From: Longimicrobium sp.
Lineage (GTDB): Bacteria > Gemmatimonadota > Gemmatimonadetes > Longimicrobiales > Longimicrobiaceae
Length of the DNA stretch: 64,000 bases
NCBI GenBank assembly: GCA_036389795.1
Contig: DASVWD010000070.1
Coordinates: 1 to 64,000 of the forward strand
Reading direction: 5' to 3'
The notes under the pieces are model-generated. The model made no database searches, was not told where the DNA came from, and saw only the letters and a program-made list of their open reading frames with translations. Shown here one piece after another: positions 20,103-60,077 of the stretch (the stretch's first letter is position 1; each line of letters begins with the position of its first letter). The translations under genes were made by a program, and so were the position numbers.

Positions 20103-21592
20103 GACGTTTCTCCCTGGGCCCAGTGGCGCGCCGCCTCCACCGCGCGGCGCCACCCCGCCAGCGCGGACGCGCGGGCGCGCTCGTCCGCCGCGGGGGTGAA
20201 GACGGCCTCCTCGGGGCGCGCGGCGGCGAAGTCTTCCGGGGCGGCCCAGAAGCCGGTGGCGAGCCCCGCCAGCCCGGCCGCGCCGCGCGCCGTGATCTCC
20301 ACCATCGCCGGGCGGCGGACGGGCACCCCCAGCACGTCGGCCTGGAACTGCATCAGCCAGTCGTTGGCCGCGGCGCCGCCGTCCACCCGTAGCTCGGGCA
20401 TGCGCACCCCGGCGTCGCCCTCCATGGCCTCCACCACGTCGCGGGTGGAGAAGGCCATGGCCTCCAGCGCCGCCCGCGCCAGGTGCGCCCGCGTGGTGCC
20501 GCGGGTGAGCCCGAACAGCGTCCCCCGCGCCCGCGGCTCCCAGTGCGGCGCCCCCAGCCCCGTGAAGGCGGGGACGAAGTAGACGCCGTCGTTGGAGCCG
20601 AGCGAGCGCGCCAGCGCCTCGGTCTCCTCCGCCGCGGCGACGATCCCCAGCCCGTCACGCAGCCACTGTACCGCGGCTCCCGCGATGAAGATGGAGCCTT
20701 CCAGCGCGTAAGCCCGCTCCCCGCGCGGCCCGCACGCCGCCGTGGTGAGCATCCCGTGGCGCGACGGCACGCGCTCGCCGCCGGTGTGCACCAGGAGGAA
20801 GGCGCCGGTGCCGTAGGTGTTCTTCCCCTCCCCCGCCCGCCAGCACCCCTGCCCGAAGAGCGCCGCCTGCTGGTCGCCCGCGATCCCCCCGATCGGCGCC
20901 TCGCCCCCGAAGGCGGCGCCGTCGGTGGCGCCGTAGACTTCGCTCGAGGGGCGGATCTCCGGGAGCACGGCCGCGGGGACGCCGAAGAGGTCGAGGAGCG
21001 CCGGGTCCCAGGCGTCGCCGTCCAGGGAGTAGAGGAGGGTGCGCGAGGCGTTGGTGCGGTCGGTGAGGTGCAGGCGCCCGCCGGTGAGCTTCCACACCAG
21101 CCAGGTGTCGATGGTCCCCGCCGCCAGCTCGCCGGCCTCGGCGCGGCGGCGGGCGCCGGGGACGTGGTCCAGCAGCCAGGCCAGCTTGGTGGCGCTGAAG
21201 TAGGGGTCGATGACGAGCCCGGTGCGGCCGCGCACCTCCTCCTCGTGCCCCTCCTCCTTGAGCCGGCGGCAGACGTCGGCCGTGCGGCCGTCCTGCCAGA
21301 CCAGGGCGTGGTGCACGGGACGCCCGGTCTCGCGCTCCCACAGCACGATCGTCTCGCGCTGGTTGGTGATGCCGATGCCGGCGAGCTCGTCCAGGCTGGT
21401 GCCCGCGGCGGCCGCGGCCACCTTGGCGGCGCGGCGGGTCACCTCCCAGATCTCCTCGGCGTCGTGCTCCACCCAGCCGGGCCGCGGGAAGTGCTGCGTG
21501 AACTCGCTGTACGCCCGCCCTCGCACCTGCCCCTCGCGGTCGATGGCGAGGCAGGTGGTGCCGGTGGTCCCCTGGTCGATGGCGAGGATCAT
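20099..21592 (-). CDS. glpK: Glycerol kinase
   Basis: 497 residues, full length FGGY-family kinase; phosphorylates glycerol to sn-glycerol 3-phosphate in the cytosol. N-terminal ILAIDQGTTGTTCLAIDREG holds the phosphate loop, ITNQRETIVLWERETG and the GGIAGDQQAALFGQGCW segment are family signatures, and the FGGY C-terminal motif region LRVDGGAAANDWLMQFQAD is intact. No glpF, glpD or glpT is adjacent. The start overlaps by ATGA with the stop of the low-GC gene upstream. Confidence 0.97.
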   Translation of the reverse strand: MILAIDQGTTGTTCLAIDREGQVRGRAYSEFTQHFPRPGWVEHDAEEIWEVTRRAAKVAAAAAGTSLDELAGIGITNQRETIVLWERETGRPVHHALVWQDGRTADVCRRLKEEGHEEEVRGRTGLVIDPYFSATKLAWLLDHVPGARRRAEAGELAAGTIDTWLVWKLTGGRLHLTDRTNASRTLLYSLDGDAWDPALLDLFGVPAAVLPEIRPSSEVYGATDGAAFGGEAPIGGIAGDQQAALFGQGCWRAGEGKNTYGTGAFLLVHTGGERVPSRHGMLTTAACGPRGERAYALEGSIFIAGAAVQWLRDGLGIVAAAEETEALARSLGSNDGVYFVPAFTGLGAPHWEPRARGTLFGLTRGTTRAHLARAALEAMAFSTRDVVEAMEGDAGVRMPELRVDGGAAANDWLMQFQADVLGVPVRRPAMVEITARGAAGLAGLATGFWAAPEDFAAARPEEAVFTPAADERARASALAGWRRAVEAARHWAQGETS

Positions 21593-22602
21593 CCGCGTGC
21601 GCCTGCTTCGGGTGAAAGATCTGGGAATTCGATACTAAGCATGGTCACTCTTTGGCCCTTTCTTAGAGGGAAAGCCCCCGCCTTCTTCAACAGGCGCCGA
21701 TAGTGCGTAGTGACATTTCTGAGGAACGTCTCTGCATAGGTAGCAGCAACAATATCGATCCATCCTATTGCACCGCGCGCCGCCCTTTGTTGGACTAACC
21801 GAACGTGTTCCGCAGGCACAAGTTGATCATGTTCAAGCGTCCAAATCGGAGCTTCGACGACGAGAATTGGATGGTATACACTTCTCTCGCTCACTCCTAA
21901 ATCCAGAGCACCCTTCACTGCCGTAGCCGAGTCGGTTCCAGACGACACTTGTAGCTTAAGGAAAATAGCCGAAAACTTTACAGCATCTGCAATCTCCATG
22001 GTAGTAAGTGCAGATATAGCAGAATTCAGGGAAGAAAGAGCCTTCCAAATTACCGAACTATCCATCTCCTTGTCCGTTTTGGTATTGGTCTCTCGAAACG
22101 TAGTTGCAACGTTCCTAGCACGGATAGGACTTAGATCGCTTTCTGACAATGGTCCATTGTCCCAGACTAATGACAAAAGATAGTCAACGGATTTGTCACA
22201 CAACTCGTTCGCCACCTTCTCGTCGAGTTCAGTGCTCAACTCACGGAAAAACTGCATACGGTGAGGTTCCAACTCTTCAAGCCATGCGATATACGGTTGA
22301 ATTCGGAGCTTGCTCGCCTCTACACGCGGAAACACCAGATGATATCCTGACAATGACTTGCATTCTACGAGAACGTAAACGTGCAGCAGACGATCTGGGC
22401 CTTTCCTTATCCACCTCCGCTCTGCCACGACATCGAGCTCGCGTGACTTGCCAGTCGCAGGATCGGAATACAGTGCTCCGTTGACGGCTGCCCATCCAAA
22501 CTTCTCGCACAATTTCAGAAGGGCGTTCTCTGTTAGAAGCGACCGGACACCCTCTGATGCGAGAACTCGAGTAGCCAGATGATCAGAATTATCGTTTCCC
22601 AT
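21589..22602 (-). CDS. Low-GC hypothetical protein, PD-(D/E)XK nuclease-like
   Basis: 337 residues. The sequence KSRELDVVAE (Asp57) followed by VYVLVECKS (Glu80, Lys82) has the spacing of a PD-(D/E)XK restriction-endonuclease-like core. The remaining two thirds are helical without recognised motifs. Base use is clearly foreign: bases 22141-22200 hold 24 G/C of 60, while neighbouring genes are far more GC-rich. It is inserted between maf (11 nt upstream) and glpK (ATGA overlap), so the operon was not disrupted. Start at 22602, the Met before GNDNSDHLA. A defence-related role is possible but unproven. Confidence 0.75.
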   Translation of the reverse strand: MGNDNSDHLATRVLASEGVRSLLTENALLKLCEKFGWAAVNGALYSDPATGKSRELDVVAERRWIRKGPDRLLHVYVLVECKSLSGYHLVFPRVEASKLRIQPYIAWLEELEPHRMQFFRELSTELDEKVANELCDKSVDYLLSLVWDNGPLSESDLSPIRARNVATTFRETNTKTDKEMDSSVIWKALSSLNSAISALTTMEIADAVKFSAIFLKLQVSSGTDSATAVKGALDLGVSERSVYHPILVVEAPIWTLEHDQLVPAEHVRLVQQRAARGAIGWIDIVAATYAETFLRNVTTHYRRLLKKAGAFPLRKGQRVTMLSIEFPDLSPEAGARG

Positions 22603-54715: not shown

Positions 54716-55678
54716 GTGCACATCAGCGTCGTCATCAACCCGCCCTCGTTCGACGCGGTGGAGGCGCTCCGCCGCGGCGTGGAGAAGCTGCGCGAAGCCG
54801 GGCACGTGGTGCACCCGCGCATGACGTTCGAGACGGGCGACGCCTCGCGCTTCGCCTGGAAGTCTGCCGAGTACGGGGCCGACCTGGTGGTGGCGGCCGG
54901 CGGCGACGGCACCATCAACGAGGTGGTGAACGGGCTCTACGAGTGGATCGAGGGGCGCGAGGCCGACGGGAAGGTGCCGGTGCTGCCGCGGCTGGGGATC
55001 GTGCCGATGGGCACCGCCAACGACCTGGCGGGCGGGCTCGGCATCCCCGGCGGCGACCCGGAGGCGGCGCTGGCCATCGCGGTGGCGGGGATCCCGCTGG
55101 AGGTGGACGTGGGGCGGGTGAACGGGCGCTGCTTCCTGAACGTCTCCACCGGCGGCTTCGGCGCCGAGGCCACCGAGGAGTCGTCCGACGAGCTCAAGCG
55201 CCTGCTGGGGCCGGTGGCGTACGTGGTGACCGGGGTGCGCAAGTTCGTGCGGCTGGAGGTCTCGCGCGGGCGCTTCACCTCCGACGGCGAGACGCTGCAC
55301 GACGGCGACTTCCTGATCTTCGCGGTGGGGAACGCGCGGCGCACCGGCGGCGGCAACTACATCACCGCCGAGGCCGACATGGAGGACCGGCTGCTGGACG
55401 TGTGCATCGTGGAGCGGATGAGCCACCTGGAAGCCGTCCGCATCGCGCCCAGCATCCGCGCCGGACGCCACGTCAACAACCCGCACGTCACCTACCGCAA
55501 GGTGCGCGAGCTGCTCGTCGAGGCGGACCACGAGCTGACCGTGAACGCCGACGGCGAGCCGCTCTGCAGCCGCCGCTTCGAGTACGACCTGGCCCCGCAC
55601 CGCCTGACGCTGATGGTGCCGGAGCTGCCGGAGGAGGGGGACGGGAAGGCGAAGGAGGGAAAGGGAGAGGAGAGTTGA
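54716..55678 (+). CDS. Diacylglycerol/lipid kinase, YegS/DgkB family
   Basis: 320 residues, plus strand. ISVVINP-type start, nucleotide motif AAGGDGTINEVVNGL near residue 60, GIVPMGTANDLAGGLGIP, FLNVSTGGFGAEATEE and AVGNARRTGGG follow in family order. ADGEPL in the C-terminal domain is also conserved. Phosphorylates diacylglycerol or another lipid (sphingoid-base-like substrates possible). The GTG at 54716 is chosen since the conserved beta strand begins there; the upstream frame is repeat sequence. The C-terminus is a charged Glu/Lys tail. Confidence 0.92.
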   Translation: MHISVVINPPSFDAVEALRRGVEKLREAGHVVHPRMTFETGDASRFAWKSAEYGADLVVAAGGDGTINEVVNGLYEWIEGREADGKVPVLPRLGIVPMGTANDLAGGLGIPGGDPEAALAIAVAGIPLEVDVGRVNGRCFLNVSTGGFGAEATEESSDELKRLLGPVAYVVTGVRKFVRLEVSRGRFTSDGETLHDGDFLIFAVGNARRTGGGNYITAEADMEDRLLDVCIVERMSHLEAVRIAPSIRAGRHVNNPHVTYRKVRELLVEADHELTVNADGEPLCSRRFEYDLAPHRLTLMVPELPEEGDGKAKEGKGEES

Positions 55679-56017
55679 TCCGGGATCTTCGCCCCTGATC
55701 TTCTCCACGGATGTGGTTCGTAGGGAGCCTGCAAGTCCGGGCACAGGCGGCATCGGCGCGAGAGGCCGCCTCCCGCGCACGAGCCGGCATCCGCCGGTCG
55801 AGCTATGCCGCGCGGATGCCGTAACGTGTGACGCCCCGGCCGGATACGAATCGTGAAGACGCGCCGGCACTGTCCACAATCACAAGCTCAAGCCTCGGTC
55901 GCGGGTTCCTAGTCGCGACCACGCCGGTGGGCGAGTTCCCCGAAGGCGCCGCGCGTGAGCCATACGGGTGGGGTTGCCAGTACTCCGCGTTCCAAGCGGG
56001 TGGTGAATGTGGGATCA
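55679..56017. other. 339-nt gap at the edge of a low-GC cassette
   Basis: No gene supported. One minus-strand frame (55803-56018) ends in VSGRGVTRYGIRAA and could be a protein remnant, but has no ribosome binding site and no family resemblance. GC drops from here to the right. Confidence 0.4.
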
Positions 56018-57163
56018 TTAGGCCGAGCCCACAGGATGTAACGGGGCTTCCATTCGCTGCACCATATCCACTCTTCCTTTGAGCTCCTCATATGCCATGA
56101 ACTCCAGGCGCTGTGTCTCACGCCACATCCAAGCGTCTACGAAGACGTAAGCCAGCACTGAACTGATCAAGGCGATCATGCCAAAGACCAGCCCTACCCG
56201 CGCCTCGATCTGGGAGCCCAAAGCGAACAGCCAAACTACGATCAGGCAGTCGAGCAGCACATCCCGGCCGGTCAACTGGGACGGGATTCGCCATTCGGTC
56301 GCGACCGTGCCGATCAGTTGCTCGAGTCGCCGCAGCCGGAGATCGTTTTCATCCGCACTCATTCGACTGTCACGAAGCAATCGCAGGGTTACGACTCGCT
56401 CGTGGAGTCCGACGACTTGCTTTCTGTTCAGGAACCGCAATGCCATCAGATCCGTCTGAGACTCAACCCAGCAATAAGTCCTCTGGAAGTGCGCAGACTT
56501 TCGAAGCAGCAGTAGGTATCCGCCCAGCCATACGGCCGCGAGCAGCAATGAACGAGGGGTCCACGAGATGACGAAGGGAAGAGGCAGGCCGGCCGAGACA
56601 AAGTCGTCGGTCTGCCAGCGGTATTGCCTACTGCCGAACAGTATCCTCGTTGACGCGTGGCAGACCTCGTGCAAGACTCTGAACGTCCTTACGGGATCAG
56701 AACTTACGGGCGGGCTGTAGTCGAAGATCAGACACGACTGGAGCACGCGGCTCCGAGTAGGAACGGTGAAGGACGTGATTACCGAAGGCCGAAGCGCGCC
56801 TTTGGGAGGCTTGTTGATTTGTAAGTACCGCGGCAGACCATGCGCCAGGGTTTCATTTGCAAGTTCATCTTTGAGTTCTGGAGGCAGGGTCTTTGAGAGA
56901 TCGTGTTCCACGAAGGTGATCTCGGGGTAGTGAGCAAGATATTTCCTCAAATCCTCCAATCCGCGCTGGGCGGCAATCTCCAGATTGAGCGTGCTTAGCA
57001 GCAGGTCGAAGATAAAAGCCGCAATCACCAGCAGCACGCTCCCAAACGACGGATGGTAGACCATTAGGATAAAAGGAACGGCCACCACCGGGAAAATCGT
57101 GAACGACTGGATAACTTCGCGGTAGAGGCGGTCAACTGCCCATTTCACTATGTCAGGTATCAT
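56018..57163 (-). CDS. Membrane gluzincin-like metallopeptidase
   Basis: 381 residues. Two N-terminal membrane helices (about 20-37, 42-60), a soluble domain with HEVCH at 165-169, a membrane segment (about 207-221), then WVESQTDLMALRFL with Glu234 as probable third zinc ligand, and two more helices (about 305-345). HExxH plus E-x3-D spacing resembles M48/M56-type peptidases, though I cannot name the family. Base composition is near 50% G+C in sampled 60-nt stretches, far below the surroundings. The ATG at 57163 lies inside the preceding gene (11-nt overlap). Confidence 0.7.
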   Translation of the reverse strand: MIPDIVKWAVDRLYREVIQSFTIFPVVAVPFILMVYHPSFGSVLLVIAAFIFDLLLSTLNLEIAAQRGLEDLRKYLAHYPEITFVEHDLSKTLPPELKDELANETLAHGLPRYLQINKPPKGALRPSVITSFTVPTRSRVLQSCLIFDYSPPVSSDPVRTFRVLHEVCHASTRILFGSRQYRWQTDDFVSAGLPLPFVISWTPRSLLLAAVWLGGYLLLLRKSAHFQRTYCWVESQTDLMALRFLNRKQVVGLHERVVTLRLLRDSRMSADENDLRLRRLEQLIGTVATEWRIPSQLTGRDVLLDCLIVVWLFALGSQIEARVGLVFGMIALISSVLAYVFVDAWMWRETQRLEFMAYEELKGRVDMVQRMEAPLHPVGSA

Positions 57164-57530
57164 GGAGAGAGCCGGTCTCTGCGCGCCGCACGGCCTCGTC
57201 GAGGAGGGCCCGACGCTTCTCAGGAGGAATTCGCTCGAACTCGGACTGCAGGAACTGCTCGAACATCGTAATGAACGCGTTTCGCCGAGGAGCGTTAAGT
57301 CCTTGAACGATCTCCCGGACGGTAAGTCCGATCGAAATCATTTCGACACTCAATTTCAAAAGCTCGATCATCGCACCGAAATCGAGGTGAGAACCACCCT
57401 CGTCATACTCGAAGTTTGTCTCACCTTCTGCGATCATCTCAATGAGCTCCGGTCCGACGGCATCGCTTTCCGCAGGCCAAACCGCGAACAGAACATCCTT
57501 TACGTCGCTGGCGGAGAGCATTGCTGGCAT
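57153..57530 (-). CDS. Small acidic protein of the low-GC cassette
   Basis: 125 residues from the ATG at 57530 (AAAGGAG upstream, 9 nt away). Helical: SASDVKDVLFAVWPAES, IELLKLSVEMISIGL, VREIVQGLNAPRRNAF, and a C-terminal acidic-basic helix (PPEKRRALLDEAVRRAE). No recognised domain. Overlaps the membrane peptidase gene by 11 nt, so the two are one transcription and translation unit. Possibly a regulator or partner of the peptidase; that is inference from layout only. Confidence 0.65.
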   Translation of the reverse strand: MPAMLSASDVKDVLFAVWPAESDAVGPELIEMIAEGETNFEYDEGGSHLDFGAMIELLKLSVEMISIGLTVREIVQGLNAPRRNAFITMFEQFLQSEFERIPPEKRRALLDEAVRRAETGSLHDT

Positions 57531-57710
57531 GATGAGATACTCCTTTCCTCGGTTGTGGCGGTTTTCATCCATTGGTACTGGGTTCGAACCTTGTGTGTAC
57601 CTTCCGAGGAGAGACAAAGTGACTGTCGTTACGGCTGAGTCGAGTTGCCCTCCGTCGGTGCAGACGCGGCTTCGGTGCGGGGGGCGGGCTCCGCACCGGC
57701 GGGGCGACGG

Positions 57711-58514
57711 TTACGCGTCCTTCTCGGGCCGCGCGCTGAGAAGGGCGGCGGGGTCCTGGCGGTAGTAGGCGCGGAGCTGGTCGTACAGCTCGGGGTGCTC
57801 GCGCTCGAGCGCCACCGGCTTCTCGAAGAAGGTCTGCGACGCCACCGCGAAGAACTCGGCCTCGTCGGTGGCGCCGTACGCGTCCAGCAGCTCCTCGCGC
57901 CCCTTCGCCACCGACTCACGCAGCTCCAGGTAGTCCTCGCTCAGCACGCGCGCCCACGGGCCGTAGGCGCTCCACGAGTGCAGGACCGGGGTGCCGTCCG
58001 GCGCGCCGTCCTCCTGGTCGAGCTGGTGCGCGAACTCGTGCAGCACCACGTTCTCGCCGTCCAGCGGGTTGGCCGCGCCCGCCCGCACGCTCGCCCAGGA
58101 GAGCACCACGGCCCCGCCCTGCCACGACTCGCCGAGCAGCGATTCGTGCCCCTCGTGCACCACCGCGCCCTCCCGGCGCTCGCGGCGGGCGACGAAGGTG
58201 TCGGGGTAGACCAGGATCGAGCGCAGGCGCGGGTAGTAGTCGTCGTCCAGCTTGAGGATCGGCAGGCACGCCTGCGCGGCGACGGTCACCCGCATCTCGT
58301 CGGTCAGCTCCAGCCCGCCGCACCCCTCGAAGCGCTTCTCGGCCAGGAAGACCCGCACCTTCCGCAGCAGCTCCTCGCCGTCCTCCGGCGGGAGGCGGCG
58401 GAAGAGCGGGACGTTGCGCTTGACGATCTCCCGCCACTCCGGCGGGATCGGCTGGGCGCGGAGGCGCGCCCGCCTGCGCCGCTTCAGGAAGCCGAACACG
58501 GGGACGCGAGGCAC
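57711..58514 (-). CDS. mtfA: M90-family zinc peptidase, MtfA-like
   Basis: About 267 residues. Zinc motif HEFAHQLD, with GENVV before it and AYGATDEAEFFAVASQTFFEKP after it (third ligand region), as in MtfA, the peptidase linked to glucose phosphotransferase control through Mlc in E. coli. Here no pts genes are in sight, so only the fold and probable activity carry over. RRLPPEDGEELLRKVRVFLAEKRFEGC is the usual N-terminal helix region. Start undecided between the GTGs at 58514 and 58499; both overlap the upstream gene. Confidence 0.85.
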   Translation of the reverse strand: MPRVPVFGFLKRRRRARLRAQPIPPEWREIVKRNVPLFRRLPPEDGEELLRKVRVFLAEKRFEGCGGLELTDEMRVTVAAQACLPILKLDDDYYPRLRSILVYPDTFVARRERREGAVVHEGHESLLGESWQGGAVVLSWASVRAGAANPLDGENVVLHEFAHQLDQEDGAPDGTPVLHSWSAYGPWARVLSEDYLELRESVAKGREELLDAYGATDEAEFFAVASQTFFEKPVALEREHPELYDQLRAYYRQDPAALLSARPEKDA

Positions 58515-59322: not shown

Positions 59323-59913
59323 CTACGGCGCGCGCACCCCTGCCCCTGCCGTGGGGAGTTCGTTCCGCCGGTATTTGGATTCGTCCAGGAACAGGAACGG
59401 CCGGCCCCTGGCGAACAGCAAGAGCGCCCTGGAGCCGAAATCCTCGACGCGCCCGTACTCGACGATCAGGAGCTCCCGGCACACCTTCGCGACGCGCATG
59501 CCCCCCTCCCGCTGCTCGGGAACGATCACCGCGTCACGAAGCGCCTGGTTATAGACGGCGACGATCTGCCCCACCCTGGCCAGCGCCTGGTAGGCCGCCT
59601 GGCAGGCACGGTACTCGTCGGACCGCAGGTAGTGGGAGCGGACGTGGAGTTCCCGGTGCAGATCGACGGAGGCCGCCCAGAGAAAGGCCGGCCGTGGCTC
59701 TCCGGCGGCTTCCGTATCGAGTTCTTCGCACAGCCTAGTCATGAAGCGCACCGCTCCCCGCGCTTCCCTGACGAACAGGTCGAGGTCGCCGACCAGGCCC
59801 TTGCGGTAGCGGTGGGCGGTCAGGAACTCCTTCACGTAGTCGTTGGCGAGGAACGCGACGACCGCCCCGCCGAGACCGAGCAGAAAGCTGTAGAGCGAAA
59901 GATCGGGATTCAC
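59323..59913 (-). CDS. Hypothetical membrane-anchored protein
   Basis: 196 residues from the GTG at 59913, which has GAGGTCTCC upstream. One N-terminal hydrophobic segment (about 6-24, SFLLGLGGAVVAFLA), then soluble helices: DYVKEFLTAHRYRKGLVGDLDLFVREARGAV in parts and CQAAYQALARVGQIVAVYN. No family recognised. Lone gene, with a family A hairpin upstream. Confidence 0.6.
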   Translation of the reverse strand: MNPDLSLYSFLLGLGGAVVAFLANDYVKEFLTAHRYRKGLVGDLDLFVREARGAVRFMTRLCEELDTEAAGEPRPAFLWAASVDLHRELHVRSHYLRSDEYRACQAAYQALARVGQIVAVYNQALRDAVIVPEQREGGMRVAKVCRELLIVEYGRVEDFGSRALLLFARGRPFLFLDESKYRRNELPTAGAGVRAP

Positions 59914-60077
59914 GGAGACCTCGCATGAACGGGACACGGACATCAAACCAGAGGAGGGATCTTCTCACGTTGAGGGAGAGACGAGTCGAAAGCAAGGACG
60001 ATACAGCTTCGCCCGACGAGGTGTGATGTGATCCTGAATTGCCGAGATTTGTTCGGGATCCAGATTTGAACTGAATG

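What the first reader, a model, noticed from the sequence alone, without database searches (positions are those of the whole stretch)
56018..57530. Low-GC two-gene cassette: membrane gluzincin plus small partner
Both genes have clearly lower GC than all neighbours (30 and 31 G/C of 60 in sampled stretches). They overlap by 11 nt. The first encodes a helical acidic 125-residue protein, the second a membrane protein with HEVCH and a distant Glu in an M48/M56-like pattern. The pair could be a transferred stress, signalling or defence module in which the peptidase is activated or restrained by the small protein.
Basis: partly seen in the sequence, partly recalled or inferred. Interest (0 to 1): 0.55.

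Follow-up and report, generated by a model that had tools for sequence, protein, structure and literature searches.

The report
Orphan membrane metallopeptidase-like gene pair
A bacterium with very GC-rich DNA carries two overlapping, foreign-looking genes, one for a small acidic protein and one for a membrane protein with a zinc-peptidase signature; no relatives turned up, so the pair looks like an acquired small module whose job is unknown.

Summary
Two overlapping genes on the minus strand (57530-57153, 125 aa, acidic; 57163-56018, 381 aa, membrane) lie in a segment of 56% GC inside a 71% GC window, with GC3 0.64-0.68 against 0.86-0.99 for eight neighbours. The overlap is 11 nt. The second product has HEVCH (165-169) and ESQTD (234-238), the zinc-ligand order of gluzincins, and four or five hydrophobic segments.

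Foreign origin is likely. The slot between a YegS-like kinase gene and mtfA holds another operon in the two congeners where both anchors share a contig. "Conserved pair" was tested and not met: no significant relative of either protein was found. Neither has a significant match in Pfam, NCBIfam, PADLOC or PHROGs. Home-made M48 profiles give a suggestive but unstable match; M56 profiles give none. The small protein is not a BlaI-type repressor.

Best explanation (0.4): a horizontally acquired operon for a divergent, M48-like, cytosol-facing membrane peptidase, translationally coupled to a small acidic partner that is its regulator or substrate. Shown: genes, overlap, composition, motif, no hit in relatives. 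Inferred: fold, activity, topology, interaction, function. No defence link was found.

The parts
57153..57530 (-). Gene 1: small acidic protein P0002, 125 aa, net charge -12, no cysteine; no significant family match
   Evidence: AAAGGAG 9 nt before ATG (by eye)
56018..57163 (-). Gene 2: membrane protein P0001, 381 aa, gluzincin-type motif, M48-like order of elements; no significant family match
57153..57163 (-). 11-nt overlap of the two genes (stop of gene 1, start of gene 2)
56657..56671 (-). HEVCH, residues 165-169 of P0001 (predicted zinc ligands H165, H169; catalytic E166)
   Evidence: coordinates computed by hand from 57163
56450..56464 (-). ESQTD, residues 234-238 of P0001 (predicted third zinc ligand E234)
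   Evidence: coordinates computed by hand from 57163
55950..57620 (.). Low-GC island (about 56% GC in a 71% GC window), boundaries approximate

Best explanation
The pair is a small operon gained by horizontal transfer. Gene 2 encodes a very divergent gluzincin with the order of elements of M48 peptidases (two N-terminal membrane segments, a stretch before the motif that should be beta-rich, HEVCH, a hydrophobic segment, ExxxD) plus a C-terminal membrane hairpin. Its active site probably faces the cytosol and cleaves a membrane-associated or cytosolic target. Gene 1 is translated first from a good ribosome site, and the overlap couples gene 2 to it, so the acidic partner is likely made in at least equal amount. 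The likeliest reason for such coupling is that the partner binds the peptidase, as inhibitor or adaptor, or as its substrate. Shown: genes, order, overlap, composition, motif, no hit in relatives. Inferred: fold, catalytic activity, topology, interaction, function.
For: Open frames with the codon-position composition of genes but unlike the neighbours'. 11-nt overlap, clear ribosome site only before gene 1 (by eye). Gluzincin ligands in the right order and spacing, 0.08% by shuffling. A profile of 18 domains from M48 loci aligned residues 95-247 with HEVCH on HEIGH and ESQTD on EREAD (hhalign probability 44.8%, score 35.0), above all of 400 shuffles that keep the two motifs (maximum 29.6, one master sequence); 10 of 18 choices of master gave 28-54%, the other 8 gave 10.3% or less. 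HEVCH is not inside a hydrophobic segment. The slot is filled differently in 2 of 2 congeners with both anchors on one contig, and no match was found in 98 relatives for either protein.
Against: No Pfam match at E up to 10. A broader M48 set (47 segments) gave hhalign probability 0.5%, and 147 of 200 motif-keeping shuffles scored at least as high. The 18-member profile in global mode gave 0.0, a joint M48 and M56 profile 0.5%, and hmmsearch with the 18-member profile 3.0 bits, rank 11 of the 689 sequences reported, motif-keeping shuffles reaching 4.9. No homologue shows which residues are conserved or that the two genes stay together. Both structure models are of low confidence (mean pLDDT 42.7 and 48.6). 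No promoter-like site was found on the minus strand before gene 1.
Confidence: 0.4

Rival explanations
1. Two acquired orphan genes with no mechanistic link: an HtpX-like membrane quality-control peptidase, and an unrelated small protein that merely shares the transcript.
For: Overlapping genes are common in bacterial operons (established knowledge); no evidence of conserved association exists. The N-terminal order of elements resembles HtpX (recalled, not tested by alignment to HtpX alone).
Against: The two genes share the same atypical GC and GC3 and the island ends close to them, so they probably travelled together; a clear ribosome site before gene 1 only suggests coupling (by eye).
Confidence: 0.3
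2. Defence or toxin-antitoxin module: the membrane peptidase is a toxin or effector held in check by the acidic small protein.
For: Small acidic gene first, membrane protein second, overlapping genes, foreign composition. An M48-family peptidase lies in a published defence island of E. coli (PMC12255303, passages read); those passages do not give it a role.
Against: No significant PADLOC match (best E 0.038, to a '2TM effector' over the C-terminal hydrophobic hairpin). Of 6 neighbouring products none has a defence-type Pfam family and 2 have none; PADLOC was run on only one of the 6 (weak ZorG, E 0.031). Nothing in phages or plasmids except one match at E 0.3.
Confidence: 0.15
3. Gene 2 is not a peptidase: HEVCH and ESQTD are chance matches in an orphan membrane protein.
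For: HExxH alone appears in 1.0% of shuffles; no family match; the broad M48 profile scores no better than shuffles.
Against: Full motif order 0.08%; alignment to the 18-member M48 set beats 400 of 400 motif-keeping controls.
Confidence: 0.15

Closest known systems
Peptidase family M48 (HtpX / BepA / Ste24 group; PF01435)
   Same: HExxH, then ExxxD 65 residues further; hydrophobic segment between the two motifs; two N-terminal membrane segments as in HtpX (recalled).
   Different: No PF01435 match at E up to 10; unstable match to home-made M48 profiles; extra C-terminal membrane hairpin; acidic partner gene.
BlaI-BlaR1 type pairs (M56 peptidase with repressor)
   Same: Same layout: small gene of 125-129 codons first, overlapping a membrane gluzincin gene; a pair of this kind is in the same genome (L058 533-922 and 919-2652, overlap 4 nt).
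   Different: P0001 ranks 667 of 747 reported against the M56 profile among shuffles; P0002 does not resemble the BlaI-like set (rank 31 of 264 reported among shuffles, hhalign probability 0.6%).
ImmA/IrrE-ImmR and CapP-CapH (peptidase with repressor; family details recalled)
   Same: Two-gene peptidase plus small partner idea.
   Different: No Pfam match of any kind, so no M78 or helix-turn-helix family; P0001 has membrane segments.

Membership tests
Peptidase M48 | HExxH and a downstream ExxxD | tested here: met
   HEVCH 165-169, ESQTD 234-238
Peptidase M48 | match to the curated PF01435 model | tested here: not met
   no Pfam family at E up to 10 (HMMER's filters were on)
Peptidase M48 | profile similarity beyond the motifs | tested here: inconclusive
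   18-member profile: 44.8%, 0 of 400 shuffles as high; same set in global mode 0.0; 47-member profile: 0.5%, 147 of 200 shuffles as high; hmmsearch 3.0 bits, rank 11 of 689 reported
Peptidase M48 | zinc-dependent proteolysis | not testable with these tools
   needs purified protein
Peptidase M56 / BlaR1 with BlaI | M56 profile match | tested here: not met
   -2.5 bits, rank 667 of 747 reported; hhalign 0.5% and 0.3%
Peptidase M56 / BlaR1 with BlaI | partner is a BlaI-type winged-helix repressor | tested here: not met
M50 intramembrane (S2P) peptidase | HExxH inside a transmembrane helix | tested here: not met
   HEVCH lies outside all 19-residue windows with mean hydropathy of 1.4 or more
Known anti-phage defence system | match to a PADLOC model | tested here: not met
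   best E 0.038, to a 2TM effector over the C-terminal hairpin only
Conserved two-gene module | the same pair in other genomes | tested here: not met
   no significant relative of either protein found; the collection scans by exact 8-residue patterns reach close relatives only

The most novel reading that the evidence does not exclude
A new family of membrane gluzincins, distant from M48 and M56, that works with a previously undescribed acidic partner as a mobile regulatory or defence module, the partner being cleaved or released on a signal at the membrane.
Probability: 0.12. Interest if true: 0.6.

Novelty: new variant of a known kind. Interest (0 to 1): 0.25.

Why it matters
If real, it adds a sequence family with no curated model to the gluzincin peptidases, with a coupled partner that is not of the BlaI repressor type. 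Peptidase plus small partner pairs are a recurring way of turning on resistance and immunity operons (established knowledge), so a new one would be useful. At present it is one orphan pair in one genome, and nothing is shown about its function.

Tried and rejected
BlaI-like partner: the segment LTVREIVQGLN of P0002 looks by eye like part of BlaI; tested against 28 BlaI-like rows from the M48 and M56 loci (the starting sequence counted twice) and rejected. M56 membership: rejected. M50 type: rejected.

Family and structure libraries: only weak matches, taken as chance: NCBIfam 0.028 (RodA, P0001) and 0.011 (CCT theta, P0002); PADLOC 0.038; PHROGs 0.19; PDB none for P0001 and best 0.099 for P0002, CCT theta again, not followed up.

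Weak phylum matches: at E up to 1 gave matches in 53 of 395 genomes, the own genome included. Outside the own genome the best was 0.005, the 53 matches covered 35-154 residues and 23 of them ran through stops; judged noise. P0002 had one plasmid match at E 0.3.

Viral contigs by active-site pattern: 11 stretches. The open frames with VLHEVCHA of 10 were printed and by eye none resembles P0001; the eleventh (L122) was not looked at. The long ones look like small SprT-type proteins, by eye. The second pattern gave 0.

Structure: both single-sequence models were too poor, so no fold search was run. Flanking repeats or mobile element: only short imperfect repeats. Promoter and terminator scans were at about the chance level. 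No tRNA or Rfam match in the window.

Literature: the listings of searches (two of them empty) showed no description of such a pair; the terms were general. Passages were read of PMC7159879 and PMC12255303; of the rest only listings were seen.

Full report
Observation. Gene 1 (57530-57153, minus) encodes 125 residues, pI 4.45, net charge -12, behind AAAGGAG (by eye). Gene 2 (57163-56018, minus) encodes 381 residues; its ATG is the first ATG, GTG or TTG of the frame and lies inside the end of gene 1, overlap 11 nt. Gene GC is 0.557 and 0.562 and GC3 0.640 and 0.677, against GC3 0.855-0.989 in eight neighbouring genes. For gene 2 the composition by codon position fits a gene, and the 439-codon open frame was not reached in 1000 resamplings (maximum 345). 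For gene 1 the opposite strand is open as well, so it rests on the ribosome site and the overlap. The 1500-bp window at 56051 has the lowest GC of the 64 kb, but a second island at 21.5-22.3 kb is deeper over 500 bp.

Surroundings. The neighbours are a YegS/DAGK-like kinase (54719-55675, plus; PF19279, PF00781) and an MtfA-type peptidase (57714-58499, minus; PF06167). Gene 1 starts 180 nt after the MtfA stop on the same strand, so read-through is possible. All 10 genomes of the genus (own included) have the kinase and 7 of 10 have MtfA. In the two congeners where both lie on one contig (G008, L036; G002, L037) the interval is about 6.6 and 5.9 kb and holds an operon of surface or secreted proteins (CarboxypepD_reg and Ig-like domains, tested on L037 only). 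Of the other seven, G005 and G006 share one arrangement after the kinase, G004 and G009 have others, and the contig ends 0.3 kb or 1.7 kb on in G001 and G007; G003's contig ends about 0.7 kb on. tblastn of both proteins found nothing in the 13 stretches fetched. A close relative of the surface protein was not found in the window's own genome (best match 63 residues, E 8e-7). The slot is therefore variable; which state is ancestral is not settled. Both flanking genes are native by composition and by presence in congeners, so the pair is not a stray contig.

Search for relatives. Only the window's own copies were found: own genome for P0001; 98 relatives beside the own genome for each protein; phylum draw of 395 genomes, own included, for each (the weak matches are told under Tried and rejected); class draw of 394, own included, for P0001. 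These draws overlap. Collection scans with exact 8-residue patterns confirmed none (genome contigs: 20 and 516 pattern matches; viral contigs: 13 and 38). tblastn gave none in plasmids and phages for P0001, none in phages for P0002 and one plasmid match at E 0.3 for P0002. The pattern scans see only close relatives, and no other phylum was searched whole-genome by the genome search, so distant homologues may exist.

What gene 2 is. It has no significant match in Pfam, NCBIfam, PADLOC or PHROGs and none in the PDB by sequence. It has hydrophobic segments near 15-65 (probably two), 202-224 and 297-348 (probably two). HEVCH lies outside these. The loop between the first two has no charged residue (by eye), which weakly suggests that the catalytic part is cytosolic; the charge counts of the other loops are close to balanced apart from 221-300 (15 basic, 9 acidic). 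I took 18 domains from the 39 loci found with the M48 model (two of the 18, L057 and L058, also look like M56 proteins). Against this profile hhalign aligned residues 95-247 with both motifs in register (44.8%, score 35.0), higher than any of 400 motif-keeping shuffles. Changing the master sequence gave 28-54% for 10 of 18 and 0.4-10.3% for 8. Against it: global mode gave 0.0 and a joint M48 and M56 profile 0.5%; a set of 47 segments gave 0.5%, with 147 of 200 shuffles at least as high; hmmsearch gave 3.0 bits, rank 11 of 689 reported; an earlier 6-member profile put it first but only at 4.1 against 3.8 bits for the best shuffle. So M48-like is a reasonable lead, not a membership. M56, tested with 12 and 28 sequences, is not supported.

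What gene 1 is. No significant family match and no PDB match better than E 0.099. It is not a BlaI-type repressor. A low-confidence model shows only helices.

Mechanism. The order (small gene first with the good ribosome site, peptidase gene overlapping it) suggests that the partner is needed at or above the level of the peptidase. A partner that restrains, guides or is cut by the peptidase fits best. The BlaI-M56 pair of the same genome shows the same layout in a known protease-repressor module, but neither protein belongs to those families. Interaction, activity and target are inference. Nothing found here links the pair to defence.

Verdict. Real genes, probably acquired, without detectable relatives in what could be searched; a divergent gluzincin-like membrane protein with an unknown partner. 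Moderate to low interest until homologues or biochemistry exist.

Noticed in passing
window about 21589-22600, minus strand: Second and deeper low-GC island (500-bp minimum 0.468) beside a glycerol-kinase-like gene (named by eye); it encodes a product of about 337 residues with no Pfam match at E up to 0.01 and no PADLOC match at E up to 1 that carries a possible PD-(D/E)xK-type stretch (ELDVVAE...VLVECKSL, by eye).
   Followed up: partly
window 59326-59946, minus strand: 207-residue product with an N-terminal hydrophobic segment (by eye) and no Pfam family at E up to 0.01; GC3 0.855, the lowest of the eight neighbours measured; weak PADLOC match to ZorG (E 0.031), likely chance.
   Followed up: partly
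window 57714-58499, minus strand: MtfA-type peptidase (PF06167, E 4.6e-96), itself of a zinc peptidase family, directly upstream of the pair on the same strand; not found in 3 of 10 genomes of the genus.
   Followed up: partly
L036 1900-8500 and L037 2100-8050: Operon of secreted or surface proteins in the slot where the window has the pair; the L037 copy has CarboxypepD_reg, Ig-like and a weak LysM match.
   Followed up: partly
L058 533-922 and 919-2652: A BlaI-M56 pair in the same genome, overlapping by 4 nt, followed by an open frame that looks like a beta-lactamase-type serine hydrolase (by eye).
   Followed up: no
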